25,561 bases of DNA, taken from IMG/VR virus record IMGVR_UViG_3300031758_000516, positions 1 through 25,561 of that record. The stretch is one strand, 5' to 3'. Both the position numbers and the translations under genes were made by a program. Source of the stretch: a virus. Positions 2,407 through 23,505 of the stretch are shown here, piece by piece. Position 1 is the stretch's first letter. Each line of letters begins with the position of its first letter. A model generated the notes under the pieces. The model saw nothing but the letters and a program-made list of their open reading frames with translations. It was not told the DNA's origin and ran no database searches.

Positions 2407-3585
2407 ATGTCAGGATATAATCCAGATTATGATTTAACTTATCAACTTATTAAAGATACTTTTGGGAGCTTATTACAGGTAGGCCCTCAAGGTGAATTTT
2501 ATAACGGTTTAGGTAATCCAGTAGATATAATAGGGCCCTCATCGCAGGGCCCTCAAGGCGTTCAAGGGAATTCAGGCATTGATGGAACTCAAGGACCAGA
2601 AGGTCTTCAAGGACCTCAAGGGAATTCAGGCATTGATGGAACTCAAGGACCTCAAGGGAATTCAGGCATTGATGGCATTGATGGAACTCAAGGGCCAGAA
2701 GGTCTTCAAGGACCTCAAGGGAATTCAGGCATTGATGGAACTCAAGGGCCAGAAGGTCTTCAAGGACCTCAAGGGAATTCAGGCATTGATGGAACTCAAG
2801 GGCCAGAAGGTCTTCAAGGACCTCAAGGGAATTCAGGCATTGATGGAACTCAAGGGCCAGAAGGTCTTCAAGGACTTCAAGGGATCAATGGAACCCAAGG
2901 TCTTCAAGGACCTCAAGGGATACAAGGACCTCAAGGACTTCAAGGACTCCAGGGGGCACAAGGTCTTCAAGGACTTCAAGGGATCACTGGTACACAAGGA
3001 TTCCAAGGAGCTCAGGGATTGCAAGGGCTTCAAGGATTCCAGGGAACACAAGGTCTTCAAGGTCTTCAAGGACCTCAGGGGCTTCAAGGACTTCAAGGAA
3101 TTACTGGTACACAAGGCCCTGCTGGTATCACTGGAGCAGCTTTTTCTCCTATGAATGTTAGTGCTTGTGATCTAGCACCCACAGCAGCTACTACTCAATA
3201 TTATTATCAAACAATAGCAGAACTTACAATGACTGTTTCTAAAGCCAAACTTTGGGGGTTTAGTGGCTCGGATACTGTAAGATTTGGACTTTATCGAGGA
3301 ACTTTATCAGGATCTAAAACATTAATAGGTCAAGGTAGTGCATTGTGTGGAATAGGACCTAATGTCATAGATATCATAGCTCAGTCCGGCCAGACATTAG
3401 ATTTAGTAGCAGGAGAAGATATAATAGTCGGTTTTTACCCAGCCGGAACAAGTTGGAGAACAGTGTATGATACTGGAATAAGTGACACTGCTTTTGGTAT
3501 TACAAATACTGCAGATATCACAACAATGCCTGCTAATCCAACTGGCACTGCTACTGGCGTTAGATTTGCTCTTACTTTATACTAA
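2407..3585 (+). CDS. collagen-like fibre protein (GXY repeats)
   Basis: A 392-residue protein in three parts. Residues 1-47 are a unique N-terminal attachment region. Residues ~48-243 form an unbroken Gly-X-Y run of about 65 triplets dominated by GPQ, GLQ, GTQ, GPE, GNS and GID. Residues 244-392 are a beta-rich C-terminal domain (VRFGLYRGTLSGSKTLIG, EDIIVGFYPAGTSW) that looks like a trimeric receptor- or surface-binding head. Such collagen-like stalks in phages form trimeric tail or capsid fibres. The first part of the run is built from exact 54-bp DNA repeats. It follows the probable virion protein at 1835 closely and probably shares its transcript. Whether it is a tail fibre or a head decoration cannot be told from the sequence. 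Confidence 0.85.
   Translation: MSGYNPDYDLTYQLIKDTFGSLLQVGPQGEFYNGLGNPVDIIGPSSQGPQGVQGNSGIDGTQGPEGLQGPQGNSGIDGTQGPQGNSGIDGIDGTQGPEGLQGPQGNSGIDGTQGPEGLQGPQGNSGIDGTQGPEGLQGPQGNSGIDGTQGPEGLQGLQGINGTQGLQGPQGIQGPQGLQGLQGAQGLQGLQGITGTQGFQGAQGLQGLQGFQGTQGLQGLQGPQGLQGLQGITGTQGPAGITGAAFSPMNVSACDLAPTAATTQYYYQTIAELTMTVSKAKLWGFSGSDTVRFGLYRGTLSGSKTLIGQGSALCGIGPNVIDIIAQSGQTLDLVAGEDIIVGFYPAGTSWRTVYDTGISDTAFGITNTADITTMPANPTGTATGVRFALTLY
2566..2880 (+). repeat. 54-bp tandem repeats inside the collagen-like gene
   Basis: The marker GGGAATTCAGGCATTGATGG begins at 2566, 2620, 2656, 2719, 2773 and 2827, with spacings of 54, 36, 63, 54 and 54. The unit encodes 18 residues (NSGIDGTQGPEGLQGPQG), which is six GXY triplets. 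All spacings are multiples of 9, so both reading frame and triplet phase are kept. The 36 and 63 spacings show an 18-bp deletion and a 9-bp duplication (GGCATTGAT twice). The near-identity points to recent slippage or unequal recombination. Confidence 0.9.
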
Positions 3586-6455: not shown

Positions 6456-7127
6456 ATGAAAGTAAAAGATTATAGAGAATTTTTACAGATCGAAGAAGGG
6501 CTGATTACAACTTACCCGATGGATTTCTTTTCTAAAAAAGTTAAGATGCTTATAAGTGGAAAAGGTATTAAAGCTTCTATCAGAGTCGAAAAACTTACTA
6601 ATTCTCTTGTCTTAAATCTAGCATCGTGTACATTAGATTTTTTAAAAATTCTTGAAAAAACATCTGATCAGAATGGTTATTTCATCTCATTAATAGTGAT
6701 AGAAGAAAAATACTATAAAAAAATAGATGAAGTAAAGCTAGATAAAGGTGCGCCTGTTGAAGTGCATTTTGAATCTAAATTTGATAAAGAAGTTAAAGAT
6801 ATCCCTGATACATTATATCATGTGACATTATCTAAAAATCTTGAAAAGATACGAAAAATAGGTCTAGTTCCTAAATCAAAAATGAAACAGACTTATCATT
6901 TGGATAGAATTTACTTAGCTTTTACTATTGAAGGGGCAAAAGCTATAGAGAATGAATTTAAAGGGATAGATAATTCTAAATACGTGATATTGAAAATTTC
7001 CACTAAGGGATTGAATGTAAAATTTATGAAGGATCCTAATGCTACTCTCTTTTCTGGAGAAGTGCTTGGAATCTATACACATGAAAATATTTCTTCAGAA
7101 TTTATTAAAGAATTTCAATATAAATAA
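6456..7127 (+). CDS. putative ART-fold (KptA/DarT-like) protein with capsid-leader-like N-terminus
   Basis: A 223-residue protein. The N-terminus MKVKDYREFLQIEEG resembles the capsid-targeting leader of T4 internal proteins. Residues ~119-215 look like an ADP-ribosyltransferase fold: LYHVTLSKNLEKIRKIGLVP (Tyr121-His122-x-Thr124, then GLVP), LDRIYLAFT (150-157), and a late NISSEFI segment. This pattern is shared by RNA 2'-phosphotransferase KptA and DarT-like enzymes, which use NAD+. Residues 20-110 form an unrecognised N-terminal domain. It begins one base after the UvsY gene stop. If packaged and injected it could modify host proteins or nucleic acid, by analogy with T4 Alt. Fold call moderate; substrate unknown. 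Confidence 0.5.
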   Translation: MKVKDYREFLQIEEGLITTYPMDFFSKKVKMLISGKGIKASIRVEKLTNSLVLNLASCTLDFLKILEKTSDQNGYFISLIVIEEKYYKKIDEVKLDKGAPVEVHFESKFDKEVKDIPDTLYHVTLSKNLEKIRKIGLVPKSKMKQTYHLDRIYLAFTIEGAKAIENEFKGIDNSKYVILKISTKGLNVKFMKDPNATLFSGEVLGIYTHENISSEFIKEFQYK

Positions 7128-9907: not shown

Positions 9908-9958
9908 TTTAATGCGGTAGAGGCGCAATACCTTCCCTTTTTAATAGAACGCATTAAA
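9908..9958 (+). other. long-range stem (TTTAATGCG/CGCATTAAA) before terminator; possible structured RNA
   Basis: A perfect 9-bp inverted repeat (9908-9916 with 9950-9958) encloses 33 nt that can form an inner GGTA/TACC pairing (9916-9919 with 9929-9932). It begins right after the stop at 9907, and its 3' arm overlaps the terminator stem by 3 nt, so the two may compete or stack. It could be a 3' UTR structure or a small RNA. I do not recognise an RNA family. Confidence 0.35.
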
Positions 9959-9987
9959 AGCTGATAGAAATATCAGCTTTTTCTTTT
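9956..9987 (+). terminator. intrinsic terminator
   Basis: An 11-bp stem AAAAGCTGATA / TATCAGCTTTT with a GAAA tetraloop (9967-9970), followed by a T-rich tract (TTCTTTTT). It ends the uvsW-DUF5856 side and is followed within 2 bp by a GATATATAG motif for the next unit. Confidence 0.85.
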
Positions 9988-10014: not shown

Positions 10015-10917
10015 ATGAAGATAAAAAGCTATAATGATTTCTTTGTCACGGATTTTGAATTATCTGAATCAGAAGAAGTGAAATTAGATAAATCTTTGAG
10101 AGAGTATGAATTGCAACACAAGTCTGGAGATCTATTTATAGTCAAATCCGATGATTTTCAAAAAGAATTTTTCGTTAAGCCTTATAATTCAGAGAGTGTT
10201 AAATTACTTCCAGATGTTCAGGAGAGACTAGAGAAAGCTATCCAAACGCTTAATGTTGAAGATCTATATAATTCTATTAAAGCTGCTGAAAGAATTCCGT
10301 ATGAATTCGGAAAAATTTTTACTTCTCTGTTCGATTTAAAGAATGTTCCCGAATTGTCCATATCTTTAGATCCTGATTTGCAAAGAACTCTACAATCTTC
10401 AGAGAAAGAATTTCTGATGAACAATTTTAACCAATTGAACAAAGAAACTAAAGACTTAGTAATAAGCACTATGAGAGAAAGAGCAGAATTACTATGTGTA
10501 TCTATAGAAGCTCTTTTCTATTTCTTACGAAGCGAAGATAAAGATAAGTTCTATCAAAACTTGAGCTCTGATGAAATATTAAAAATATACAAAGAAAAAG
10601 TAGAAGAAGCTGCTAAAGAATCGCAGTTTTCTGTAGAAGGTCCTTTCTCTGATATTAAAACTAAAGCTCAGATAGACGAGACTTCGGAAACAGCTTTTTG
10701 GGAATGTGAAAAAGACCAGAAAACTTTTATAATTAAAGCTACCATATCTCCTTCAAAGCTTCACTCTGAAGACAATATAGGAGGCACTTCAGGTCTAAAA
10801 TTCAGCTTATCTGTGAGTGGAAAACCTGAGAATGATGACGATTTTAATTTCTTCAGTATAGAAGAGCTTAAAGATAGAGCAAAACTTTTTAATTCTAAAA
10901 TACTTAAAAAAACATGA
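10015..10917 (+). CDS. hypothetical protein with capsid-leader-like N-terminus
   Basis: A 300-residue acidic protein. I prefer the ATG at 10015 (MKIKSYNDFF) over 10003 because it fits the leader of its neighbours and leaves room for a leader transcript. The leader MKIKSYNDFFVTDFELSESEE is followed by a long helical region (~residues 60-200) and a more beta-rich C-terminus (TAFWECEKDQKTFIIKATIS). No domain recognised. It is the first gene of a tightly coupled string, overlapping the next by ATGA. Probably a packaged internal protein, by inference. Confidence 0.6.
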   Translation: MKIKSYNDFFVTDFELSESEEVKLDKSLREYELQHKSGDLFIVKSDDFQKEFFVKPYNSESVKLLPDVQERLEKAIQTLNVEDLYNSIKAAERIPYEFGKIFTSLFDLKNVPELSISLDPDLQRTLQSSEKEFLMNNFNQLNKETKDLVISTMRERAELLCVSIEALFYFLRSEDKDKFYQNLSSDEILKIYKEKVEEAAKESQFSVEGPFSDIKTKAQIDETSETAFWECEKDQKTFIIKATISPSKLHSEDNIGGTSGLKFSLSVSGKPENDDDFNFFSIEELKDRAKLFNSKILKKT

Positions 10918-11159
10918 ATAATCAAGAGAAAATAGTGGAATTTTGCACTAAAGTTAAGAAAGGATTTGGCACTATTGTAGATACGATAGTAAAGACTGAA
11001 TTTGAAAGAATCTATGAAAATAGGCTTGAAGGTGAAGAATTGGCTACTCTGTTAGCTCTTTTAGAAAAACATGATCTTTTAGATAAAAAGAGATGCACAA
11101 ATTCGGCACCAGGATTCTATCAAGATATGAGAAAAAAAATGAAAGAATCTAAAATATGA
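10914..11159 (+). CDS. small hypothetical protein
   Basis: An 81-residue helical protein (IVEFCTKVKKGFGTIVDTIV, then a LEGEELATLLALLEKHDLL helix) with a basic C-terminus (MRKKMKESK). It overlaps both neighbours by ATGA, so it is translated with them. Unlike them, it lacks the leader motif. No family recognised. Confidence 0.55.
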   Translation: MNNQEKIVEFCTKVKKGFGTIVDTIVKTEFERIYENRLEGEELATLLALLEKHDLLDKKRCTNSAPGFYQDMRKKMKESKI

Positions 11160-11392
11160 AATCTTTTATTGAATTCGTAAATGAAGCTGAGGCGTTTTCT
11201 CATGAAATAAAGTCTGAAAAATATTGGAGACAAATTTTAAAAAATGTCAATAATTCTTCTCAAAGAGAGTTTGCGACAAAAGTTTTAGATACTATTATGA
11301 CCAAACAGAACGGTTTTGCTTCAGATAGGCAAATGGAAATTTTACACAGAGCTGAAAAGGGAGATAACTCTCCATATAATACTAAAAACTGA
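11156..11392 (+). CDS. small protein with strong capsid-leader match
   Basis: A 78-residue protein starting MKSFIEFVNEAEAF, the closest match in the window to the T4 internal-protein leader MKTYQEFIAEA, with VNE before Ala at the expected cleavage point. The remainder is helical and basic (KYWRQILKNVNNSSQREF, then RQMEILHRAEKG). Predicted to be a small internal head protein whose mature form starts near residue 11. Overlaps ATGA with the gene before and by one base (TGATG) with the gene after. Function unknown. Confidence 0.6.
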   Translation: MKSFIEFVNEAEAFSHEIKSEKYWRQILKNVNNSSQREFATKVLDTIMTKQNGFASDRQMEILHRAEKGDNSPYNTKN

Positions 11393-11841
11393 TGAAAAAT
11401 TTTAATGATTGGTTAGTTGAAGAAGAAAGTAGTTATCTTTATCCGTTAAAAATGCTAGCTCCGCATAAAGATAAGTATATAAAGGATAACAATCTAGAAG
11501 AAGGCGAGATAGTGTATTTTCAGAATTCCAGATACAGAGGAACTGTAATCATAAGAGCTTATAAGAGAGTGAGAGATAGCCTTCCTGGGAAACAACCAGA
11601 ACCCGATTTTCCTTACACTATTTATGTTTCTAAGAAAGGAAAGGGAGAATTTCATCTGAATGCAGATTTGCTTTTACCGCCTGATGTACTTAAACAAACA
11701 TTAGATGTTGTAGAAAAGTATGCTTCTCCAGAAAATCCTGTAGAAGCATATAGAGAGATATGTGATATTATAGAAAAATACTCAGACGAAAATGCTAAAA
11801 AATGGAAAATCGAAGAAACTAGTAAAAAATTTGGATTATGA
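11392..11841 (+). CDS. protein with capsid-leader-like start and C-terminal KFGL tag
   Basis: A 149-residue protein. It starts MKNFNDWLVEEESSYL, a leader-like sequence with LVE before Glu, and ends ETSKKFGL, matching the C-terminal tag of three other proteins in this block. The middle contains a small beta-rich segment (EGEIVYFQNSRYRGTVIIRA) and a helical region. No catalytic motif recognised. Coupled on both sides (TGATG and ATGA). Probably a packaged protein of unknown activity. Confidence 0.6.
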   Translation: MKNFNDWLVEEESSYLYPLKMLAPHKDKYIKDNNLEEGEIVYFQNSRYRGTVIIRAYKRVRDSLPGKQPEPDFPYTIYVSKKGKGEFHLNADLLLPPDVLKQTLDVVEKYASPENPVEAYREICDIIEKYSDENAKKWKIEETSKKFGL

Positions 11842-13010
11842 AGTTTAAAAGTTACGAGCAATTCAACGAAAGTATAGCGGATTTATTCAAGTCTGCTCAT
11901 GGTGCAATTGAGCCCGATAATCTTATTCCTGCTGAAAGGCTTATAGACCATCCAAAGTTTTTCACACAAGAAGAGTTTGATGAAGCTATTGAGTACTTGA
12001 ACATTGATCCTGAATATTTATACTACAATCCAAAAGATATCATATCTCCAATTATGTACTGGAACGGTCCTATTTACGAACCTTTTCATGGAGGATTAAA
12101 TATGGAAGCGCTTAAAATGTTTCACACTAAAGAAAGGTTGCAGCACAAGACTGAAAAGTTTGAAAAGCTTTTAAAAGCTAATGATTATGCAAGCGTCTTT
12201 GATATGATGGATAAAAAAATACTTATCCCATCTTTTGTGAGCATGTACAAAGAAATTCCTGATAAAGATAAGTACGATATTTTTAAAGATCTTTACGTTC
12301 GTTCGGAATACGGATTTCAAACATTTCCGGTGGAAATAATAAAAGACTGCTTTTCTAAACGAAAGCTTTCTACCGAATGGAAATCAAGAATGGAAGAATT
12401 TAGTAAAACTGTTAAGTTAAATCCGGACGTAACTTTAACTATTTATAGAGGAGAAAATGTAGATTCTGCAAAAGGAGATGATGCATTTTCTTGGACACTT
12501 GATAAAAAGACTGCTAAATTCTTTGCAGATAGATTCAGTAAAGGCTCTGGAAGAATCATAGAAAAAACTATCAAAGTTGAAGAAGTTATTGATTACTTAG
12601 ATGACAGAGGAGAATCTGAAGTGATTCTTTTTCCGAAAAAATTTGGAATTCTTAAAGAATCTTTAGAAGAGAGTATCATTGGAGGATCTGAACACATAGA
12701 TTTTCCGATTGGAGGAAAAACCAGAGTAGTTTTCTCTAGAGAATCGAACAGTATCGAAACTATCAATTTTCATCCTAATCTAGGGAAAATAACATGGTTT
12801 GAATTAGATAAAGATGGGAACTTTCACACTGATACGACTGCTTCAGAATTTTTCATATTTAAACAGTTTTACGAATTTATAAAAAATCCTCCCGCTACGC
12901 ATAGAGAAAGAACTGCTACATTGTTGTCATGGGAACCTTTTAAGGCATGGATAGATTCTTGTACAGAGAAGTACCGAATAAAACTAACAGGAGAAAGATA
13001 CGGACTATGA
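11838..13010 (+). CDS. putative Alt-like ADP-ribosyltransferase with leader and C-terminal YGL tag
   Basis: A 390-residue protein. Leader MKFKSYEQFNESIADLF. Residues ~195-265 carry the three ART signatures of the R-S-E class: LTIYRGE (Arg204), the FSWTLDKKTAKFFADRF segment (Ser218-Thr220 region), and GESEVILFP with an ExE pair (Glu259, Glu261). ExE is typical of arginine-targeting mono-ADP-ribosyltransferases. The T4 protein Alt is packaged, injected and modifies host RNA polymerase, and this gene has both the enzyme signature and the leader to do the same. Residues 280-390 form an additional domain ending TGERYGL. The ART call is fairly firm; the target and injection are inferred. Confidence 0.7.
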   Translation: MKFKSYEQFNESIADLFKSAHGAIEPDNLIPAERLIDHPKFFTQEEFDEAIEYLNIDPEYLYYNPKDIISPIMYWNGPIYEPFHGGLNMEALKMFHTKERLQHKTEKFEKLLKANDYASVFDMMDKKILIPSFVSMYKEIPDKDKYDIFKDLYVRSEYGFQTFPVEIIKDCFSKRKLSTEWKSRMEEFSKTVKLNPDVTLTIYRGENVDSAKGDDAFSWTLDKKTAKFFADRFSKGSGRIIEKTIKVEEVIDYLDDRGESEVILFPKKFGILKESLEESIIGGSEHIDFPIGGKTRVVFSRESNSIETINFHPNLGKITWFELDKDGNFHTDTTASEFFIFKQFYEFIKNPPATHRERTATLLSWEPFKAWIDSCTEKYRIKLTGERYGL

Positions 13011-13735
13011 AAAACTTTAGAGAATTTTGCTTGTACGAATTTATAAACACTAGAGAAATAGATCCAAAGAGATTTCAAAATCCTGGGAAAAAAGGAGACG
13101 TAGCTTTCTTTAAACGAGGATTTCTAGATGGACTTATTAAAGATGATATAGTGAGATCAAAAGAGATCAATATTTCAGCTAACAAATTGAAACCTTCTCA
13201 AACGTCAGTTTTCTTGGGAAAATCTTTAGACATGGCTGTCAGAGGATATTACGGTGGAGATTTGGGATCAATAGTCTCATCGGATTTAAGAATCTTGGAT
13301 GGACATCATCGTTGGGCAGCCACTGTATTTGCAAATCCTACTGAAATATTGACATGTACTCAACTAGATATGACTATTGGAGATCTCATTCCTGTTCTTA
13401 GACAAGCTGGTGATATTTTAGGAAATACAAGAGGAGTTGAACCTGACGGAGGAGACATTAATATTTTTGAAGCTACGATAGAAGATGCTGAAGAGTGTAT
13501 TCTTACCGGAAAAGGATTTCCAGAAAAAAATTGGAACCTTGAAAAAGCCAAAGAATGGTTTGAAAAAAATAGAGACAATGTGTCGAAAGCTTTAGAATTT
13601 TTCAAGAAAACCACTCCACCGGCTGGAGCTTTGCCCAGAGAACAGATGCCAAAGATTAAAAAAGACCAAGTAGATTCTGTAGAGAGGATACTTAATCGAG
13701 GTGGAATTGATGTTAGAACTCCTTACGCTGAATAG
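13007..13735 (+). CDS. ParB/sulfiredoxin-fold domain protein with capsid-leader-like start
   Basis: A 242-residue protein from the ATG that overlaps the previous stop (ATGA); a longer upstream frame is less likely. It starts MKNFREFCLYEFINTRE. Residues ~54-110 match the ParB/Srx fold: ISANKLKPSQTSVFLGKSL, then GGDLGSIVSSDLRILDGHHR with the DGHHRWAA signature (98-105), which binds nucleotide in this superfamily. Members include ParB CTPases, nucleases and a free-serine kinase. The C-terminal part is helical with a basic tail. It follows the ART gene directly and is probably in the same packaged set. The exact activity cannot be assigned. Confidence 0.65.
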   Translation: MKNFREFCLYEFINTREIDPKRFQNPGKKGDVAFFKRGFLDGLIKDDIVRSKEINISANKLKPSQTSVFLGKSLDMAVRGYYGGDLGSIVSSDLRILDGHHRWAATVFANPTEILTCTQLDMTIGDLIPVLRQAGDILGNTRGVEPDGGDINIFEATIEDAEECILTGKGFPEKNWNLEKAKEWFEKNRDNVSKALEFFKKTTPPAGALPREQMPKIKKDQVDSVERILNRGGIDVRTPYAE

Positions 13736-13736
13736 T

Positions 13737-13919
13737 ATGAAAAATTGGTTATTAAATTGGACATCTTTTGTGACAAGAAACACTCAAGTTGAATTTGATG
13801 GAATTTCTTACGAAGATGGGCCAGAATGGTTTCAAAAAATGTGGGAATCTTGGTTGAAAAATTCAGACTATGGTCAGAAGCTTAGCAAGAAAATGAAAAA
13901 GAAGAAGAAACATGTTTAA
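13737..13919 (+). CDS. small basic hypothetical protein
   Basis: A 60-residue protein taken from the ATG one base after the previous stop. It is tryptophan-rich (MKNWLLNWTSF, WFQKMWESWLK) with a lysine-rich end (KLSKKMKKKKKHV). It overlaps the next gene by 8 bp. It could bind nucleic acid through the basic tail. No leader motif and no recognised family. Confidence 0.5.
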   Translation: MKNWLLNWTSFVTRNTQVEFDGISYEDGPEWFQKMWESWLKNSDYGQKLSKKMKKKKKHV

Positions 13920-14232
13920 AGATTACGAACAATTCCTTAACGAAAACGATACACACAAAGAAGAATTTGAAAAAGAATGTACTCATTACATTTCAAAAGA
14001 CATACCAGGGAAAGAAAAATACACTGGTCACCTTGTTCAAATTAAGGATGATTTTGGAAGAGGTAATCCAAGAGCCAAAGCATTTGAGAATAAGATTATA
14101 GTAAGAGATTCAGGATCTACAACTCATCATACCCTTGTCATACAATTCAACATGTCTGATGAAGATGTTGAAAAGTATTTCAAGCCTATTACCCAATCTT
14201 ATTTAGCATCTAAAAAATACGGTTTAAGATAA
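13912..14232 (+). CDS. small protein with capsid-leader-like start and C-terminal KYGL tag
   Basis: A 106-residue protein starting MFKDYEQFLNENDTHKEE, a good leader match with LNE before Asn. It ends FKPITQSYLASKKYGLR, similar to the end of the 18838 product (FKGTLAGRKYGL). The middle is beta-rich (GHLVQIKDDFGRGNPR, then HTLVIQFNMSDEDV). No enzyme motif seen. It is the last gene before the methyltransferase and is followed by a 51-bp gap with an inverted repeat. Confidence 0.6.
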   Translation: MFKDYEQFLNENDTHKEEFEKECTHYISKDIPGKEKYTGHLVQIKDDFGRGNPRAKAFENKIIVRDSGSTTHHTLVIQFNMSDEDVEKYFKPITQSYLASKKYGLR

Positions 14233-14252
14233 TCTCTAAACCTTTCTAATTT

Positions 14253-14283
14253 CCGTCTATAATTTTTTATAGAAATTTGACGG
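14253..14283 (+). promoter_or_regulatory. inverted repeat abutting the methyltransferase start
   Basis: CCGTC (14253-14257) pairs with GACGG (14279-14283), and inside it TCTATAA (14256-14262) pairs with TTATAGA (14267-14273). The two pairings share bases, so they are alternatives. The outer arm ends at the base before the ATG at 14284, so folding could affect initiation. It might also simply be a promoter-like AT-rich element. Function is inferred. Confidence 0.3.
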
Positions 14284-15462
14284 ATGAATAATGAAATTAA
14301 GTACGCCGGAATAGTTCCCCTGATAGGAGGAATGATGTTTGGAGCTGAAAAAGCTACCGGAAAAAAACCAGAGTACATACTAAGCTACCCTCCTTTTGCT
14401 GGAAATGATTCCATGTTAATGGATTATTGGAAAGAAGTTCCATACCATGTAATAGACCCCGAAACAAATACAGTAGAAAATACACTATCTAACGTAGATT
14501 TTGTTTCCGCTTTGTGTCCTTGCGCAGGCTTGTCTCAACTTAATAATGGAAAAAATAGAGGAGCAAATGCTACTCAGAATGATTGGATGTACAAAACTGC
14601 AGAGTTTGTTCTCGAAGGGATGCAACCTAAAGTTTTCTGGGGAGAAAATGCCCCAGGTTTGTTTAATCCTGTTGGAGAACCTGTAGCTGAAAGGTTAAGA
14701 GAAATCGGTGAAAAGAACGGTTACTCTATGTCATTGCTAAAAACTTCTACAATGTTACATGGGATACCTCAGAACAGAGTAAGATCTTTTTACTTTTTCT
14801 GGAAATCCGAAACTGCTCCTATTCTAAATTGGTACAATGTTGAAATGCCAACATTAGAAGAGTACTTACATAGAATAGATGAAATGGTCTCACCTGAAGA
14901 TAAATTAGAAAAAGCTTTAGAGCTCCAATCTGATCCTCTTTACATCTGGTTAAAGCAAGAGTTTGGAGACTGGAGAGGATTCATGAAAGAGAAAAAAGGT
15001 TCTATGATGGATGTCATGATCAATTCAGGAAAGCCTGATGAGTATATCGAATGGGTAAAAACTAATTATCCTGATCATGAGAAAAAAGCTGCACATGCTC
15101 TTTATAAAAGAAGAAATGGTATGGGATTCTGGGATAGCAGCCCATTTCTACCTTCGGATTACACTGGAGCTTTTACTGGAGCAAGAATGAACGCTATTCA
15201 TCCTACTGATGATAGAGTGTTGACTAGAAGAGAATTGATGCATTTTATGGGGCTTCCTTCTAATATGATAGTTCCAACACAAGATCACATGGGTAGAGTT
15301 TTTCAGAATGTACCCTCTTCTACCGCTGCAGATTGGACAAGAGAAGTTATTAAATTTATTAACGGAGAATTGGAAATGAGCGAGCATTCTTTTATTAAAC
15401 AAGATAACTTATCTCAAAAAATTACCGTTCCTTCAAGAGTGAAATCTGCTCCACTATTCTGA
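14284..15462 (+). CDS. DNA cytosine-C5 methyltransferase family protein
   Basis: A 392-residue protein. Motif IV with the catalytic Cys is LCPCAGLSQL (Pro79-Cys80), motif VI is GENAPGL (Glu121-Asn122), motif VIII is HGIPQNRVRSF (159-169), and the late TRRELMHFMGLPS matches the family motif IX region (usually RxLTxRExxxLQGFP). It would transfer a methyl group from SAM to C5 of cytosine in DNA, probably to protect phage DNA from host nucleases. Odd points: motif I is unusual (IVPLIGGMMFGAEKA instead of FxGxGG), and PCAGLS replaces the common PCQxFS, so the substrate may differ. No partner endonuclease gene is next to it. An inverted repeat abuts its start. Confidence 0.75.
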   Translation: MNNEIKYAGIVPLIGGMMFGAEKATGKKPEYILSYPPFAGNDSMLMDYWKEVPYHVIDPETNTVENTLSNVDFVSALCPCAGLSQLNNGKNRGANATQNDWMYKTAEFVLEGMQPKVFWGENAPGLFNPVGEPVAERLREIGEKNGYSMSLLKTSTMLHGIPQNRVRSFYFFWKSETAPILNWYNVEMPTLEEYLHRIDEMVSPEDKLEKALELQSDPLYIWLKQEFGDWRGFMKEKKGSMMDVMINSGKPDEYIEWVKTNYPDHEKKAAHALYKRRNGMGFWDSSPFLPSDYTGAFTGARMNAIHPTDDRVLTRRELMHFMGLPSNMIVPTQDHMGRVFQNVPSSTAADWTREVIKFINGELEMSEHSFIKQDNLSQKITVPSRVKSAPLF

Positions 15463-15470
15463 TATATAAG
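15461..15470 (+). promoter_or_regulatory. GATATATAAG motif, candidate promoter
   Basis: Variant of the recurrent motif, overlapping the stop codon of the methyltransferase gene and 38 bp before the ATG at 15508. It suggests the ligase/adenylyltransferase gene can be transcribed separately. Confidence 0.4.
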
Positions 15471-15507
15471 GTATAGAAGGAAAAGATACGACTACAAAAT
15501 TATCAAG

Positions 15508-17424
15508 ATGGCAATAAATTATTTATACGAAGAGTACAAGAAAGATCCTCAAAGGATTGAAAAATTACTAGAAGAAAAAATTGAGATCACTGAAAAACTA
15601 GACGGATCTAGATTTTTAGCGCAAGCACAAGAAGGTGGTACTCTATCCTTTTACAAAAGAAAAGACATGTCAATTTCTAAAATTGATAGGACTCTTTCTA
15701 AGTACTATGAGAAAGCAATTTTACATTTTGAAAATTTTCCACCTGAGAAAGTAATTCAACTTCCTGAAGGATGGAGATTTGGGATGGAATATTTTCCTAA
15801 TTTGCGTCCAGTTACTATCGCTTACGATAGATTACCTTTAAACAATCTTGTCTTAACTGATATTAAAGTTAAAGATCCTAGAGATAAGACGATAGATATT
15901 ATAACTGATAAGAAAACTCTTGACCGTTGGGCAGATATTTTAGAAGTTGAAAGACCTCCAGTTATCTTTGAAGGTCTTCTTGATGATAAACAGAAGCGAA
16001 GAATTTTAGACTTTTTAAATACACCTTATGGGAATTTAGTAAAAAGATTCAAGACTGAAAACTTTACACATTTTATTCTTTCTATGTTGAATCCGCAACT
16101 GAAAACTTCTTTCTTGCACAACAACACTGACAAAGATATAGACGGATTAATATTCAAATTTGGCGGAAAAGAATCTTTTAGAGTTAGTAACCCTGAAGTT
16201 GTTTTACAGAAAACTGCTAAAAGAGAAGATAAACCTTCCGATATTTACAACTTAACTCTTGTTATACTTCAAGAATTCTTAACAGGATTAGATTTTAGAA
16301 AGATAAAACTTAAAGAAAAGACTTACGAAGAGCGATACATTGAATTTATCTCTAAAGCTTTTTCACTTTTCTTAGAGTCTCCTCAGTACAAAAAGAATTT
16401 TGAAAAAGGAGTAGATTTTGAACTTCCATCTTTTTTATCTAGAGCAGAATCTAATGTTAATTTCAAGTTTGTAAAAGAACCTGAAATTCTTTCAGCTTTA
16501 GAAAAGAGCAACACAAACCGTGAGCTTTTTAAGATTATGATGGCATCTATGAGATCTCACAAGAAAAGACCGTCCGGATTCTTTTCTAAAGAGCTTGTCT
16601 ATCATCACAATGCTTTGGTAGATAAGATAGCAGATTTTATAGACGAAGGTGTTAAAATAGATAAGAAAAATTCATTTTCACTTAAAGAAGCTACTCTAGT
16701 TTCTTTTCAAGAATTCAAGAAAGTTTTCTTGACAGAGTCCGTTGATTGGCAAGAAGAATTTGGAAAGGAAAAACCTGAAGAGCTTGAGAACGTAGATGTT
16801 AATGATGTAGTAGAGGATGAAGAGTTGAAAGAAAACGTTATATTCCCTTCTTACACTGATCTAAAAAAGTTACAAACTGTAGATAGTATTTCTAGACCAG
16901 TTTCAGTGATGCGTAAATTGTTTAGCGAAACTTCTCAGGAAGATAAAAAACAGACTCCGGTTTGTTTACTTATGGGAAAATTTCAGCCTTTTCATAACGG
17001 ACATAAAACTATCATAGAAGATGCTAACACTGCTTCAGGGTGTAAAGTTTTCCTAGTGGTTACTTCCAAGAGATTAGGAAATAACGGAATCACAAGAGAA
17101 CTTCACACTTCTATGTTAGAAGAAGCTTTAGCGAAGAACAAAGATATATGTGGTTACATTTTCTCAGAAGGTAGAACTGTGACTGAAATTATAAAAGAAC
17201 TTCCTTCTAAGTACAAAATCAAAGCTTTCGCAGGAAGCGAAGATGAATGCGAAGATGTGAAGACCCAATATAAAGAACTTGAAACATATCCTATGACTAG
17301 GCATATCAGTTCTAAACAAGTTTTTCAGAAGATTAAAGAAGAAGATTACGATGGTTACAAAAAACTTGTACCTTCATCTCTTCATAATTACTTCTATAAA
17401 CTTAGAAATGAGATTACTTCTTAA
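15508..17424 (+). CDS. fusion of ATP-grasp-free ligase-like nucleotidyltransferase and NMN-adenylyltransferase-like domain
   Basis: A 638-residue two-domain protein. Residues ~1-240 look like a covalent nucleotidyltransferase (RNA/DNA ligase family): motif I EKLDGSRF with Lys30, RFGMEYF as a likely motif III (90-96), DGLIFKF as motif IV (212-218), and VVLQKT as a candidate motif V. Residues ~485-638 are a cytidylyltransferase-like domain: LMGKFQPFHNGH (488-499, the GxFxPxHxGH nucleotide site) and HISSKQVF (599-606, like the ISSTxxR of NMNAT). A helical linker (~260-480) contains SFQEFKKVFLTES, similar to the capsid leader. It could join RNA ends and make or use NAD in a repair or salvage pathway. 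Domain calls are good; joint function is inferred. Confidence 0.75.
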   Translation: MAINYLYEEYKKDPQRIEKLLEEKIEITEKLDGSRFLAQAQEGGTLSFYKRKDMSISKIDRTLSKYYEKAILHFENFPPEKVIQLPEGWRFGMEYFPNLRPVTIAYDRLPLNNLVLTDIKVKDPRDKTIDIITDKKTLDRWADILEVERPPVIFEGLLDDKQKRRILDFLNTPYGNLVKRFKTENFTHFILSMLNPQLKTSFLHNNTDKDIDGLIFKFGGKESFRVSNPEVVLQKTAKREDKPSDIYNLTLVILQEFLTGLDFRKIKLKEKTYEERYIEFISKAFSLFLESPQYKKNFEKGVDFELPSFLSRAESNVNFKFVKEPEILSALEKSNTNRELFKIMMASMRSHKKRPSGFFSKELVYHHNALVDKIADFIDEGVKIDKKNSFSLKEATLVSFQEFKKVFLTESVDWQEEFGKEKPEELENVDVNDVVEDEELKENVIFPSYTDLKKLQTVDSISRPVSVMRKLFSETSQEDKKQTPVCLLMGKFQPFHNGHKTIIEDANTASGCKVFLVVTSKRLGNNGITRELHTSMLEEALAKNKDICGYIFSEGRTVTEIIKELPSKYKIKAFAGSEDECEDVKTQYKELETYPMTRHISSKQVFQKIKEEDYDGYKKLVPSSLHNYFYKLRNEITS

Positions 17425-17819
17425 TGGACAATTTTTTAGATTTTGAAAATTTTCACTCTTTAAATGAAGATTTCAAAGAAAATTTTACTAAACTTGAAGA
17501 TGCTATTAGCAACAAGTTTGTTTTGAATTTTTATTACAAAGGAGAACAAAAAGGTGTTGTAGATGATGGGTACAGAGAAGTTGAACCGTATGCATTAGGA
17601 GTAAATAAACACGGTAACACTGTACTTAGAGCTTGGTTGATAAAAGGTATCTCTAGATCAGGGAAAATAGATCCTTCTTTAGTACCAGGTTGGAGACTTT
17701 TCAGAGTAGATAGAATTGGAATGGTAAATCCAACTTTAAGTAAATTTACTACTCCACGAAAAGGATATAATGCAGACGATCAAGGTATGACTGAGGTTCA
17801 TACTTCTGCACAATTTTAA
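17424..17819 (+). CDS. WYL-like domain protein with weak leader
   Basis: A 131-residue protein beginning MDNFLDFENFHSLNEDF, a weak leader match with LNE. Residues ~25-105 resemble a WYL domain: FVLNFYYKGEQKG, GYREVEPYALGVNKHGN, TVLRAWLIKG and PGWRLFRVDRIGMV. WYL domains bind nucleic-acid or nucleotide ligands and regulate defence systems and transcription factors. Here it stands alone without a helix-turn-helix. Its ATG shares one base with the preceding stop, so it is coupled to the ligase/NMNAT gene. A standalone, possibly packaged WYL protein could sense or sequester a host ligand, by inference. Confidence 0.6.
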   Translation: MDNFLDFENFHSLNEDFKENFTKLEDAISNKFVLNFYYKGEQKGVVDDGYREVEPYALGVNKHGNTVLRAWLIKGISRSGKIDPSLVPGWRLFRVDRIGMVNPTLSKFTTPRKGYNADDQGMTEVHTSAQF

Positions 17820-17830
17820 CTATCTTTACT

Positions 17831-18349
17831 ATGATTAAGAACTTTGAACAATTTATATTTGAATCAGAAGATCCAGACACTCGCCTTGTAAACTTCTTCT
17901 CTTCGCTTACTAGAAATTATGAAACTGACAGACCTTTTTATACTGATCAATTACAATTTGACATTAATCAGGAATGGAGAAATTGGGAAGATACTATCAA
18001 GAAAGTTAAATTAGAAAAACTAGTAGACATAGAAGCTTCTTATAAAATAAACTTCACTCTAGATCAAAAGAACTATATTCTAAAGTTAGAGTTTGTTTTC
18101 ACTATCAACGGTCAGAATGAAAAAGATGCCCCAGAAGCGCTATCCGATGAAAACGCTGAAAGGTTAAATATTGTCTTAGAAAAAATAACTCCTAAAAAGA
18201 TCGATCTAAAATCTACAGATTTTGACATTGAAAAATCCGGAAGTGGAATATCTGCTCCAGTCATCAAAGCGCTTGAAACATTTTTAGTGAAAGTTCTTGA
18301 AGCTGATTACGATTCACTGGGAGGAGAGATATATAAGATAGAACAATAA
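17831..18349 (+). CDS. hypothetical protein with capsid-leader-like start
   Basis: A 172-residue acidic protein starting MIKNFEQFIFESEDPD, a good leader match (IFE before Ser). It has alternating beta strands (IEASYKINFTLDQKNYILKL, then LEFVFTING) followed by a helical end (PVIKALETFLVKVLE). No family recognised. It starts 11 bp after the WYL gene, and a GATATATAAG motif lies in its last codons. Confidence 0.6.
   Translation: MIKNFEQFIFESEDPDTRLVNFFSSLTRNYETDRPFYTDQLQFDINQEWRNWEDTIKKVKLEKLVDIEASYKINFTLDQKNYILKLEFVFTINGQNEKDAPEALSDENAERLNIVLEKITPKKIDLKSTDFDIEKSGSGISAPVIKALETFLVKVLEADYDSLGGEIYKIEQ
18328..18337 (+). promoter_or_regulatory. GATATATAAG motif, candidate promoter
   Basis: Variant of the recurrent motif inside the last codons of the preceding gene, 28 bp before the ATG at 18365. 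Being within coding sequence, it is weaker evidence than the intergenic copies. Confidence 0.3.
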
Positions 18350-18364
18350 AAAAAAATTAAAAGT

Positions 18365-18838
18365 ATGCCTAGTACTACACAGGAACAACAAAAACTTTTT
18401 GGATGGGCTTTAGCTTGCAAAAGAGGAGAATCTAAAGAATGTCCTGCAAATATTCAAAACCTTGCGGACAAAATGACAGAAGTTGAACTAGAAAAATTTG
18501 CGTCATCTTCTAGATTACCAAAGAGAATTAAAGAATCTCTTAGAGAATGTATGGAGAACATGGATCCTGAGACTTTTGAATTACTAGAAGCAAAATCATC
18601 TACAGGAGATGTTACCACTCCTCCTCAAGTAGATAAAATTCCTTCAGTGCCTCCGGGCTATGAACAAGCATCTGCGAAAAGAGAACCTATGACTCCTAGC
18701 CTTTATAAAGCTCCAATGGGTAAAGCTAAACATGAAAGAAGATTAATGGATTTTTCTGAATTCTTAGACAGAATCAACTATAGAACTCATGACAATGTTT
18801 TGCAAAAAGGCCACGGGCAAAATTTAACAGGAAAATAA
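18365..18838 (+). CDS. DUF3008-like small virion-type protein
   Basis: A 157-residue protein. Residues 4-50 (QEQQKLFGWALACKRGE, then QNLADKMTEVELEKFAS) follow the pattern of a small domain common in large phages, similar to DUF3008, in which a Q-rich helix precedes an AxxKRGE turn and a MsexxLexfA helix. A proline-rich linker follows (PPQVDKIPSVPPGYEQ). Near the C-terminus RRLMDFSEFLDRINY resembles the leader motif, but internally; the end is QKGHGQNLTGK. The internal segment starts with a Met codon at 18747, so a 30-residue independent product is conceivable. Function unknown. Confidence 0.55.
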   Translation: MPSTTQEQQKLFGWALACKRGESKECPANIQNLADKMTEVELEKFASSSRLPKRIKESLRECMENMDPETFELLEAKSSTGDVTTPPQVDKIPSVPPGYEQASAKREPMTPSLYKAPMGKAKHERRLMDFSEFLDRINYRTHDNVLQKGHGQNLTGK

Positions 18839-19356
18839 TGGAATTCTTGAGTTACGATCAATTTCTCAATGAAAATGAAGAAAAGCCTAGGAGATCTGTT
18901 AGAGCAAAATCTCCAATGACACCTATACTAAAGAAGTCGCTAGATAGAATTGGTAAATCTTTCAAATCTGACGAGGAGATAGTTAAAGCTATTGAAAAAC
19001 TAGGATTTGTAAGAGAACCACTGAAACCTAATTCAAATGGAGCAGAATATATCTTTGTATATGACACAGATCTTGACACAGGCAAAAAATACAGATACAT
19101 TACGTACGAGAATGGTTATGTTAGAGCTGAAATGCCAGGCGGACATTGGAAAATAAAAGGCTATAATCAAACGCCTATCAGCGATCAGTATATACCAACT
19201 ACTAGAGAACGGTTATTATTAGTTCTTAGAAGAGCTTTAAAGAAAAACGATCTTTATCAGTTATGGTCTAAAGCTAATTTAAAATCAGATGATCCTGTAT
19301 CAGAATTTTTCAAAAAATTCAAAGGAACATTAGCTGGTAGAAAATACGGATTATAA
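18838..19356 (+). CDS. protein with capsid-leader-like start and C-terminal KYGL tag
   Basis: A 172-residue basic protein beginning MEFLSYDQFLNENEEKPRR with LNE at the expected cleavage point, and ending FKGTLAGRKYGL. The middle has a beta-rich region (GAEYIFVYDTDLDTGKKYRY, then GYVRAEMPGGHWKIKGY) and a basic helix (ERLLLVLRRALKKNDLYQL). No enzyme motif. It is the last gene of the block; its ATG shares a base with the preceding stop, and its transcript probably ends at the terminator 19459-19482. Confidence 0.6.
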   Translation: MEFLSYDQFLNENEEKPRRSVRAKSPMTPILKKSLDRIGKSFKSDEEIVKAIEKLGFVREPLKPNSNGAEYIFVYDTDLDTGKKYRYITYENGYVRAEMPGGHWKIKGYNQTPISDQYIPTTRERLLLVLRRALKKNDLYQLWSKANLKSDDPVSEFFKKFKGTLAGRKYGL

Positions 19357-19451: not shown

Positions 19452-19458
19452 CTTTCTA

Positions 19459-19482
19459 AAACCTCCTGATGGAGGTTTTTTT
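19459..19482 (+). terminator. intrinsic terminator closing the accessory block
   Basis: Stem AAACCTCC / GGAGGTTT with a TGAT loop (19467-19470), followed by seven T. It separates the tagged-protein block from the nucleotide-metabolism genes starting at 19543. Confidence 0.9.
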
Positions 19483-21298: not shown

Positions 21299-22675
21299 AT
21301 GATAGATATTGAACAACTTTCAGACAGACTAAGAATTTCTCATTTTGGAAAAGACGGTCAAGTAAAATTTAAAGATATTGCTATTCCAAAAACTGAAAAG
21401 TACAAATGGGAACTTGCAGGATCTGAAAGAAAAGATCCATTCTTTCTTTCTTGGGACGGACAACCTGTCAAAAAAACTCGAACTAATTATTTGTCAAAGT
21501 TTAGAATAGAAGAATTTCTAGCTTCACAAAGCGAAGAAGTAGTAAAAGATATTTTTGAATTCAATCAACCTGAGGTATGGTTTTGCGATATTGAGGTAGA
21601 AGTTGGAGAAGAATTTCCAGATCCTGCTCAAGCAGCCACTCCAGTTTTAGCTGTAGCATTAGTTAATTCGGAAGGAAGAGTTTTTGTTTTTGGTTTAAAA
21701 CCTCTTAGCTCTGAACAAATACTGAGATTGCAATCAAAAATGCAAGATTATTTCAAAAATTTTGGAATTGAAATAATCTTCCAATACGAACATTTTCAAT
21801 CAGAAGCTGAATTACTGTACACTCTTTTTGAAAAATGGTTTAAGAAGATGCCTCTAATCACAGGATGGAACTTCGTAGGATTTGACTGGAAATTTTTAAT
21901 AAACAGAGCTAAACGATTAGGAATAGATCCTTCAAGATGTTCAATAAATGGACAACTAAAAGGAGATGATAGTTTTCCTATGCATAAAGTAGTAGTCGAT
22001 TATCTTGAACTTTACAAAAAGTGGGATAGAGTTATAAAGATCAAAGAAAATAACAAACTAGATACTGTTGCTAATGCAGCTCTAGGAGTTACTAAAATTA
22101 AGTACAACGGTACTTTCATGGATCTTTACAATACTGACTTTGAAACTTACATTTACTATAACGCAGTCGATACTTTTCTGGTTTATCTAATAGATAAAAA
22201 ATTGAAAACTATGCAGACGTTCTTAATGTTAGGAAATGTAACCAGAGTAGAAGCGCAGAAAGCTTTCTCGCCGATTTGGATGACTGAAGCTATAGTTACT
22301 AGAGAATTTTACAAAAGAAAAAGAGTGGTAGCAGAAATAAAGAAAGCTACTAAAACAGGATCTTTTGAAGGAGCATACGTTAAACAACCTCAACCAGGTT
22401 TGTACGAGTCAATCGCTACATTTGACTTCGCTTCTCTGTACCCTTCAGTAATGAGGCAATGGAACATTTCACCTGAAGCTTACAAAGGAAAAAACATAGA
22501 TCTGAGAGAAGGATGGATAAAAACTGCATCAGGAGCAGTATTTGATAATAATGAAGATTCTATTATGAGATCTGTTCTTACAGAGTTCTACGCTAAACGT
22601 AAAGTTTCAAAGAATAAGGCATTTGAGATTGAAAAAGAAATATCGGAATTGCAAAAAATATGTAAAACAAAATAA
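21299..22675 (+). CDS. gp43: DNA polymerase B (T4 gp43-like), N-terminal exonuclease half ending before motif B
   Basis: A 458-residue protein (T4 gp43 has 898). It carries the 3'-5' exonuclease motifs: Exo I FCDIEV (Asp97, Glu99), Exo II GWNFVGFDWKFL (~Asp196) and Exo III YNAVDTFLVYLIDK (~Asp291). Palm motif A is FDFASLYPSVMRQWNISPE (Asp376). The frame stops (ICKTK then TAA) just before the place where the KxxxNSxYG motif B would follow. Motif C (DTDS) and the thumb are missing and not encoded downstream: an HNH endonuclease starts 5 bp later, then NrdB. The polymerase is either split, with a second gene elsewhere, or broken. Splits of gene 43 are known in some T4-like phages. Confidence 0.85.
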   Translation: MIDIEQLSDRLRISHFGKDGQVKFKDIAIPKTEKYKWELAGSERKDPFFLSWDGQPVKKTRTNYLSKFRIEEFLASQSEEVVKDIFEFNQPEVWFCDIEVEVGEEFPDPAQAATPVLAVALVNSEGRVFVFGLKPLSSEQILRLQSKMQDYFKNFGIEIIFQYEHFQSEAELLYTLFEKWFKKMPLITGWNFVGFDWKFLINRAKRLGIDPSRCSINGQLKGDDSFPMHKVVVDYLELYKKWDRVIKIKENNKLDTVANAALGVTKIKYNGTFMDLYNTDFETYIYYNAVDTFLVYLIDKKLKTMQTFLMLGNVTRVEAQKAFSPIWMTEAIVTREFYKRKRVVAEIKKATKTGSFEGAYVKQPQPGLYESIATFDFASLYPSVMRQWNISPEAYKGKNIDLREGWIKTASGAVFDNNEDSIMRSVLTEFYAKRKVSKNKAFEIEKEISELQKICKTK

Positions 22676-22680
22676 GTTTT

Positions 22681-23505
22681 ATGAATTATCAATGGCATTA
22701 TGATAGATTAATAGAAACTAGGAAAACTAGAGAAATGGCATCTGTGGAATATTATGAAAAACATCATATACTTCCAAAATCAATGGGTGGATCTAACGAT
22801 AAAGATAATTTAGTTTATCTTACAGCCAGAGAACATTTTATTGCACATTGGCTTCTTTGGAGAATATATAGAAACCAACAAATGGCTTACGCTTTTCATT
22901 CGATGTGTAATTTTAGAAACACTGGACAAAAAAACCATTTTATTTCTAGTAGAGCATATTCAGAAGCTAAAGAAGTGTTCAGGCAAATCGTAAGTGAAAA
23001 AATGAAAGGTAATACATACTGTTTGGGATATAAACATACAGATGAAGCTCGCAAAAATTTTAGCATATCGCATAAAGGATTAAAAAATAGTTTAGGATTT
23101 AAGCATTCTGATGAGGTTAAACTACAGAGATCTGAAGCTTTAAAAGCATCGTGGAGACGAAGGAAAGAAAACGGTCTTAAACCTATAAATCGCAAACCTC
23201 ATACAGAAGAAACTAAAAATAAAATACGAGAAGCCAACAAAGGTAAGATTCTATCAAAAGAGACTAAAGAAAAAATTTCATTATCTAAACAAAATGTTAG
23301 TGATGAGACGCGGAAGAAAATTAGTGAAGCTAACAAAGGACGAAAGCTTTCAGATGAAACAAAAAAGAAGATGTCTAGCAGTAGAACTATTAGACAAAAA
23401 GAAATTAAGAATTGTGAATTTTGTCTAAAAGAATTTGAAACAAATAAGAACAAAAGATTTTGCAATAGGAGTTGTGCATGTTCTTTTCAAATGAAAAATA
23501 AGTAA
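22681..23505 (+). CDS. HNH homing endonuclease with NUMOD3 repeats
   Basis: A 274-residue protein. The HNH core is near the N-terminus: YEKHHILPKSMGGSNDKDNL, then REHFIAHWLLW. Several NUMOD3-like DNA-binding repeats follow at residues ~115-240 (HTEETKNKIREANKGK, SDETRKKISEANKGR, LSDETKKKMSSS). The C-terminus holds a possible zinc finger (CEFCLKEF, then RFCNRSCACSF). Homing endonucleases of this type cut a recipient allele to spread their own gene, usually inside conserved genes. It is placed directly after the truncated polymerase, with no room for a group I intron at its upstream side, so it is probably freestanding or an inserted mobile gene. It carries the A-rich start seen in the window. 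Confidence 0.9.
   Translation: MNYQWHYDRLIETRKTREMASVEYYEKHHILPKSMGGSNDKDNLVYLTAREHFIAHWLLWRIYRNQQMAYAFHSMCNFRNTGQKNHFISSRAYSEAKEVFRQIVSEKMKGNTYCLGYKHTDEARKNFSISHKGLKNSLGFKHSDEVKLQRSEALKASWRRRKENGLKPINRKPHTEETKNKIREANKGKILSKETKEKISLSKQNVSDETRKKISEANKGRKLSDETKKKMSSSRTIRQKEIKNCEFCLKEFETNKNKRFCNRSCACSFQMKNK

What the first reader, a model, noticed from the sequence alone, without database searches (positions are those of the whole stretch)
10015..19356. Block of proteins sharing a T4-like capsid-targeting leader: candidate injected effector set
The proteins starting at 10015, 11156, 11392, 11838, 13007, 13912, 17424, 17831 and 18838 (plus 6456 outside the block) begin with variants of MK-x-[FY]-x-[EDQ]-F-[LIV]-x-E, for example MKSFIEFVNEA, MFKDYEQFLNEN, MEFLSYDQFLNEN and MIKNFEQFIFES. 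T4 internal head proteins start with MKTYQEFIAEA, a leader that targets them to the prohead and is cut after [LI]xE by the gp21 protease. Apart from that start these proteins are unrelated, and several carry effector-like domains (ART, ParB/Srx, WYL). The block is bounded by terminators at 9956-9987 and 19459-19482. It may be a large arsenal of proteins packaged and injected with the genome.
Basis: partly seen in the sequence, partly recalled or inferred. Interest (0 to 1): 0.85.

Follow-up and report, generated by a model that had tools for sequence, protein, structure and literature searches.

The report
Phage cargo proteins with packaging tags
This stretch of a large T4-like bacterial virus encodes at least ten otherwise mostly unrelated proteins that start with the same short tag, which in phage T4 sends proteins into the virus head to be injected into the next host; related giant phages tag dozens of proteins this way, so the tag is a way to read from sequence what such phages probably inject.

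Summary
Ten window proteins begin with an aromatic-x-x-aromatic leader followed by an [LIV]xE-like site (5 exact matches against 0.14 expected in shuffled starts). The same start is the strongest N-terminal pattern in related 200-480 kb phage genomes: exact matches 26, 21, 12 and 9, against 0.2-0.7 expected. T4 IPII and IPIII come up as positive controls; phiKZ and PTm1 give none. Across 103 such proteins the bodies fall into 93 unrelated families. The conserved positions are the four mapped experimentally in the T4 capsid targeting sequence. Six relatives carry an S77 prohead protease fused to a scaffold with 4-15 copies of the same Y-x-x-Y-L-x-E pattern. Orthologues show the leader is an add-on: conservation starts at the predicted cut site, and an ADP-ribosyltransferase and an Acb1-like 2H phosphoesterase exist with and without it. 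Most likely this is an operon of head-packaged, injected host-takeover and anti-defence proteins of the T4 internal-protein kind, greatly expanded. Packaging, cleavage and injection are inferred; the window is a fragment without head genes. The set extends outside the block, and several members also share a C-terminal KYGL-type end.

The parts
6456..7127 (+). Leader protein MKVKDYREFLQIEE|G (223 aa), outside the block; weak similarity to Tpt1/KptA RNA 2'-phosphotransferase (ART-like fold)
   Evidence: Pfam E 0.0077, below cut-off
10015..10917 (+). Leader protein MKIKSYNDFFVTDFELSE|SEEVKLD (300 aa); orthologue in L082 is 50% identical from LSE|SEEVKLD onward, leader not alignable
11156..11392 (+). 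Leader protein MKSFIEFVNE|A (78 aa); body 63% identical to residues 264-336 of a 336-aa leader protein of L082
   Evidence: PHROG 'internal head protein' hit, E 0.014
11392..11841 (+). Leader protein MKNFNDWLVE|E (149 aa) with C-terminal SKKFGL
11838..13010 (+). Leader MKFKSYEQFNE|S + ADP-ribosyltransferase domain (R204, S218-W-T, E259-x-E261) + C-terminal domain ending GERYGL (390 aa)
13007..13735 (+). Leader protein MKNFREFCLYE|F (242 aa) with DGHHRWA motif (ParB/Srx-like); a leader-bearing homologue in G001
13912..14232 (+). Leader protein MFKDYEQFLNE|N (106 aa), C-terminal SKKYGLR
17424..17819 (+). Leader protein MDNFLDFENFHSLNE|D (131 aa) with WYL domain
   Evidence: PF13280, 6e-7, above cut-off
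17831..18349 (+). Leader protein MIKNFEQFIFE|S (172 aa), no known domain
18838..19356 (+). Leader protein MEFLSYDQFLNE|N (172 aa), C-terminal AGRKYGL; orthologue remnant in L002
9956..9981 (+). Intrinsic-terminator-like stem-loop before the operon
19458..19479 (+). Intrinsic-terminator-like stem-loop after the operon
15508..17424 (+). No leader at its start; RNA-ligase-like N-terminal part fused to a cytidylyl/NMN-adenylyltransferase-like domain, with a leader-like SFQEF at the domain junction
   Evidence: the RNA-ligase reading of the N-terminal part is by eye, no profile hit
14284..15462 (+). C5-cytosine DNA methylase inside the block, without leader
10914..11159 (+). Small gene without leader, conserved in this position in L082 and L002

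Best explanation
The shared start is a capsid targeting sequence of the T4 internal-protein type. During assembly its two aromatic residues dock each cargo protein onto the prohead core. In this phage group the core is a protease-scaffold fusion whose repeats show the same Y-x-x-Y-L-x-E pattern. The S77 prohead protease then cuts after the [LIV]xE site and releases the mature cargo into the head; the cargo is ejected with the DNA and acts in the new host before phage genes are expressed. The window block is one swappable operon of such cargo, including an ADP-ribosyltransferase. Shown: the leader, its statistical reality, its modularity, the protease and repeat scaffold in relatives, and the catalytic residues. 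Inferred: docking, cleavage, packaging, injection and the effector or anti-defence role.
For: Enrichment over shuffled N-termini in the window and in G001, G002, G016, G020 and W01. An unbiased search for gapped N-terminal patterns puts the leader first in G002 (94 against 19.7 expected), W01, G016 and G001, but not in T4, KVP40, phiKZ, PSSM2 or PTm1. Consensus MKxIKxFExFxNE with almost nothing conserved after it in 94 proteins; 103 proteins in 93 body families. The four conserved positions equal those mapped in T4 IPIII (PMC9026906); T4 IPII and IPIII are recovered by the same pattern. S77 protease in relatives, fused to scaffold repeats that are nearly the only proteins with 4 or more copies of the pattern; conserved major-capsid propeptide ending HSLNE|S. 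Leader as add-on: ART homologues start without it, 2H phosphoesterase orthologues occur with and without it, conservation of 10015 begins at the predicted cut site, and 11156 carries the leader at a domain border. Synonymous codons in leaders vary about as much as genome-wide in G002 and G016, so selection acts on the peptide. Acb1-like leader protein in the same island of close relative L002.
Against: No virion proteomics for any of these phages. The window's own genome is only 25.6 kb, so its protease, scaffold and capsid are unseen. Five of ten window leaders have extra residues before E or lack the aliphatic residue. A matrix built only from scaffold repeats picks out leaders only weakly (N-terminal 1.6% against 0.5% internal in G002 and W01; 3 of 37 against 0 of 278 in the window). 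G003 and G004 have the repeats but no exact leaders (fragments). PTm1 has the protease but neither repeats nor leaders. Most cargo has no recognisable function.
Confidence: 0.8

Rival explanations
1. The leader proteins are packaged in the head but serve mainly as core, scaffold or DNA-condensing proteins in assembly; few act in the host.
For: T4 IPIII affects head assembly and internal proteins co-purify with gp22 (PMC9026906). A second G002 protein carries scaffold-type repeats. Most cargo has no recognised domain.
Against: Bodies are extremely diverse and exchanged between close relatives, unlike structural proteins. Recognised bodies are enzymes or regulators: ART, WYL, NUDIX, PNK phosphatase, GNAT, Acb1-like.
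Confidence: 0.12
2. The start is an address for another destination, such as the tail, a replication compartment or a host membrane, and only resembles the T4 sequence.
For: No localisation data exist (searches found no such work). Amphipathic aromatic N-termini can have other uses.
Against: The same pattern is repeated 4-15 times in the protease-scaffold fusion and in hardly any other protein. Predicted [LIV]xE cuts coincide with where orthologue conservation starts.
Confidence: 0.06
3. The common start is DNA-level: a repeated 5' cassette that helps recombination or translation initiation, with no role for the peptide.
For: Gene content of the island turns over quickly; some W01 leaders are near-identical in DNA.
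Against: Codon use in leaders is about as varied as genome-wide in G002 and G016. The conserved residues are spaced at fixed protein positions while the DNA differs.
Confidence: 0.02

Closest known systems
T4 internal proteins IPI, IPII, IPIII and Alt with their capsid targeting sequence (Mullaney and Black 1996; reviewed in PMC9026906 and PMC3012670)
   Same: 10-19 residue N-terminal leader with the same four key positions, S77 protease, unrelated small bodies, ART among the cargo, T4-type replication genes
   Different: T4 has three IPs and Alt; the relatives here have roughly 10-75 leader proteins per genome. The protease is fused to a repeat scaffold. Some window members share a C-terminal KYGL end. 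Cargo includes WYL, Acb1-like, NUDIX and others.
phiKZ / SPN3US ejection proteins (PMC5694885)
   Same: Giant phages with many ejected, protease-processed head proteins; some identical N-termini on paralogues
   Different: Different protease motif (AxE or SxE), mostly long propeptides, no MKxIKxFExFxNE leader (phiKZ 0 exact matches)
P1 DarB and other Dar packaged anti-restriction proteins (PMC9024508)
   Same: An N-terminal signal sends an anti-defence protein into the head
   Different: No common sequence among Dar N-termini; no separate T4-type scaffold

Membership tests
T4-type capsid-targeted internal proteins | Short N-terminal leader with aromatic, aromatic(+3), aliphatic(+4), E(+6) | tested here: met
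   5 window proteins exact (11156 and 11392 at T4 positions 4, 7, 8, 10); 5 more with insertions or one missing position
T4-type capsid-targeted internal proteins | Leader on otherwise unrelated bodies | tested here: met
   103 proteins, 93 body families
T4-type capsid-targeted internal proteins | S77 (gp21-type) prohead protease in the same phage | tested here: inconclusive
   Present in G001-G004, G020 and W01; window contig lacks head genes
T4-type capsid-targeted internal proteins | Cleavage after [LI]xE in the prohead | not testable with these tools
   Sites present in sequence; conservation boundary fits
T4-type capsid-targeted internal proteins | Present in virion and ejected into host | not testable with these tools
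   Needs proteomics or reporter assay
ADP-ribosyltransferase (11838) | R-S-E catalytic signature | tested here: met
   R204, S218-W-T and E259-x-E261 invariant in homologues from Lysinibacillus and Mycobacterium phages; no Pfam hit at the curated level
ADP-ribosyltransferase (11838) | ART fold | tested here: inconclusive
   Single-sequence model, pLDDT 37
WYL domain (17424) | Pfam PF13280 over cut-off | tested here: met
   29.8 bits against 21.8
ParB/Srx (13007) | Profile match | tested here: not met
   No Pfam ParB hit; only phrog_2859 and a DGHHR motif
Acb1 anti-CBASS (L002 18235) | Acb1 / 2H phosphoesterase profile and two HxT/HxS-type motifs | tested here: inconclusive
   PF13563 over cut-off, PF23474 26.0 against 27 bits; HVT and HST present

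The most novel reading that the evidence does not exclude
In this group of giant T4-like phages the leader is a detached copy of the scaffold's own 14-residue repeat. Any protein that gains it co-assembles with the protease-scaffold core and is cut free by the same polypeptide. This gives an open loading code by which one phage packages and injects dozens (perhaps about 75 in the 482 kb relative) of exchangeable effectors and anti-defence proteins.
Probability: 0.35. Interest if true: 0.88.

Novelty: new variant of a known kind. Interest (0 to 1): 0.7.

Why it matters
It is largely unknown what giant phages inject. A sequence-readable tag would turn hundreds of unnamed proteins into candidates for injected host-takeover and anti-defence factors, name their mature N-termini, and show how the cargo set is exchanged. 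It also suggests how targeting may work, through a leader that resembles the scaffold repeat, which can be tested directly in the T4 packaging assay.

Tried and rejected
Megablast against phages gave no match. Single-sequence AlphaFold of 11838 and 6456 was unusable (pLDDT 37 and 29), so no fold search was run. PDB sequence searches of 11838, 6456, 13007 and the L002 phosphoesterase gave nothing significant. No homologues of 11838 or 18838 were found in IMG/VR. The T4 late-promoter box TATAAATA is not enriched (5 against 2.9 expected). A scaffold-repeat matrix as leader finder was only weakly better than background. The C-terminal DDFGLI end in W01 is mostly one paralogous family, so I do not count it as independent support for a second tag. 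A DNA-level cassette is made unlikely by codon variation. A scan of leader proteins against defence-system models gave only scattered weak hits. Literature searches found no description of large leader sets in huge phages; the library is open-access only, so this is not proof of novelty. A search for the string MKHIK returned only noise.

Full report
What the window is. A 25.6 kb virus fragment with T4-type replication genes: gp32-like, primase, UvsY-like, UvsW, family B DNA polymerase and ribonucleotide reductase (the reductase is read by eye). It has no close match among 50,697 phage records. The nearest relatives are L002 (UvsW 65%), L082 (15508 protein 70%) and giant contigs G001 (374 kb), G002 (482 kb), G016 (203 kb) and LR756500.1 = W01 (462 kb).

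Is the leader real? Yes. Exact four-point starts: window 5 (0.14 expected after shuffling), G002 26 (0.63), W01 21 (0.70), G016 12 (0.20), G001 9 (0.32), G020 5 (0.13), T4 4 (0.23, including IPII and IPIII), KVP40 2, P-SSM2 3, phiKZ 0, PTm1 0. An unbiased scan of gapped N-terminal patterns finds the same motif at the top in G002, W01, G016 and G001 and not in the other genomes. In G002, 94 proteins carry one form of it against 19.7 expected, so perhaps 75 real cases. Aligning 94 leader proteins gives MKxIKxFExFxNE and then almost no consensus; 103 proteins form 93 body families.

Why a capsid targeting sequence. In T4 IPIII (MKTYQEFIAE|A) residues 4 and 7 govern targeting and 8 and 10 processing (PMC9026906). 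These are the aromatic, aromatic, aliphatic and Glu positions conserved here. Relatives carry an S77 protease. In G001-G004, G020 and W01 it is a 630-710 residue protein whose C-terminal part contains tandem 14-residue repeats such as NISYSEYLAENLDK. With 4 to 15 copies these are almost the only proteins in each genome rich in the pattern; the one other, G002 264056, also has YLAEN repeats. PTm1, which has no leaders, has none in its scaffold. The major capsid protein propeptide ends in a conserved HSLNE|S. That the leader mimics a repeat is suggestive, not shown: a matrix made from repeats alone enriches N-termini only about threefold in G002 and W01.

The leader is an add-on. The ART at 11838 has homologues in Lysinibacillus and Mycobacterium phages that lack the leader and the last ~120 residues, with R, SWT and ExE conserved. 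An Acb1-like 2H phosphoesterase in L002's version of the island has leader DFQSYLSE|G. Orthologues in LR756502 and LR745206 have other leaders of the same pattern, and those in LR756508 and Maribacter phage Molly_5 have none. The orthologue of 10015 in L082 aligns from LSE|SEEVKLD onward. 11156 carries the leader at what is an internal border in its L082 orthologue. Synonymous codons vary freely in G002 and G016, so the peptide is selected.

Cargo. Window: ART, WYL, Tpt1-like (weak), ParB/Srx-like (motif only) and unknowns. Relatives: five LRR proteins, NUDIX, PNK 3'-phosphatase, GNAT, PAP2, tRNA-binding, AAA/VWA and metallopeptidase-like proteins. Gene content differs even between close relatives. 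This fits the T4 view of internal proteins as a diverse defence set with only the targeting sequence conserved (PMC3012670).

A second shared end. 11392, 11838, 13912 and 18838 end in [KR]x[FY]GL (4 of 10 leader proteins, 0 of 30 others, p 0.002). In L002 and L082 5 of 16 leader proteins and 0 of 24 others end in a related form (p 0.007; leader calls there by eye). The motif was noticed before it was tested, so the window value is post hoc. The last ~75 residues of 11838 match those of L082 5839, which has the leader but no ART. So at least part of this is a shared, fast-evolving C-terminal domain; its role is unknown.

Verdict. It is a strongly expanded variant of a known kind. Packaging and injection need an experiment.

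Noticed in passing
window 11392-11841, 11838-13010, 13912-14232, 18838-19356; L002 and L082: Shared C-terminal [KR]x[FY]G[LF] end in leader proteins; at least partly a common C-terminal domain of unknown role.
   Followed up: partly
window 15508-17424 and homologues L082-L089: RNA-ligase-like domain fused to a cytidylyl/NMN-adenylyltransferase-like domain; a conserved F-x-x-F (SFQEF) at the junction resembles the leader and could be a fossil leader or cut site.
   Followed up: partly
G001-G004, G020, W01 (e.g. G002 68283-70328): Prohead protease fused to a scaffold made of tandem 14-residue YxEYLAEN repeats, next to the major capsid gene.
   Followed up: yes
G002 264056-264997: A second, protease-free protein with scaffold-type YLAEN repeats; perhaps another core component.
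   Followed up: no
L002 18235-18795: Leader-bearing Acb1-like 2H phosphoesterase (candidate injected anti-CBASS protein).
   Followed up: partly
window 2407-3585: Collagen-like (GPQG/LQG repeat) tail-fibre-type protein.
   Followed up: no
window 21299-23505: DNA polymerase exonuclease part (458 aa) followed by an HNH/NUMOD3 homing endonuclease, so the polymerase gene may be interrupted or split.
   Followed up: no
W01 leader proteins: A paralogous family of leader proteins (at least 7 linked by body homology), several ending NADDFGLI; five leader proteins in the set of 94 are leucine-rich-repeat proteins.
   Followed up: partly
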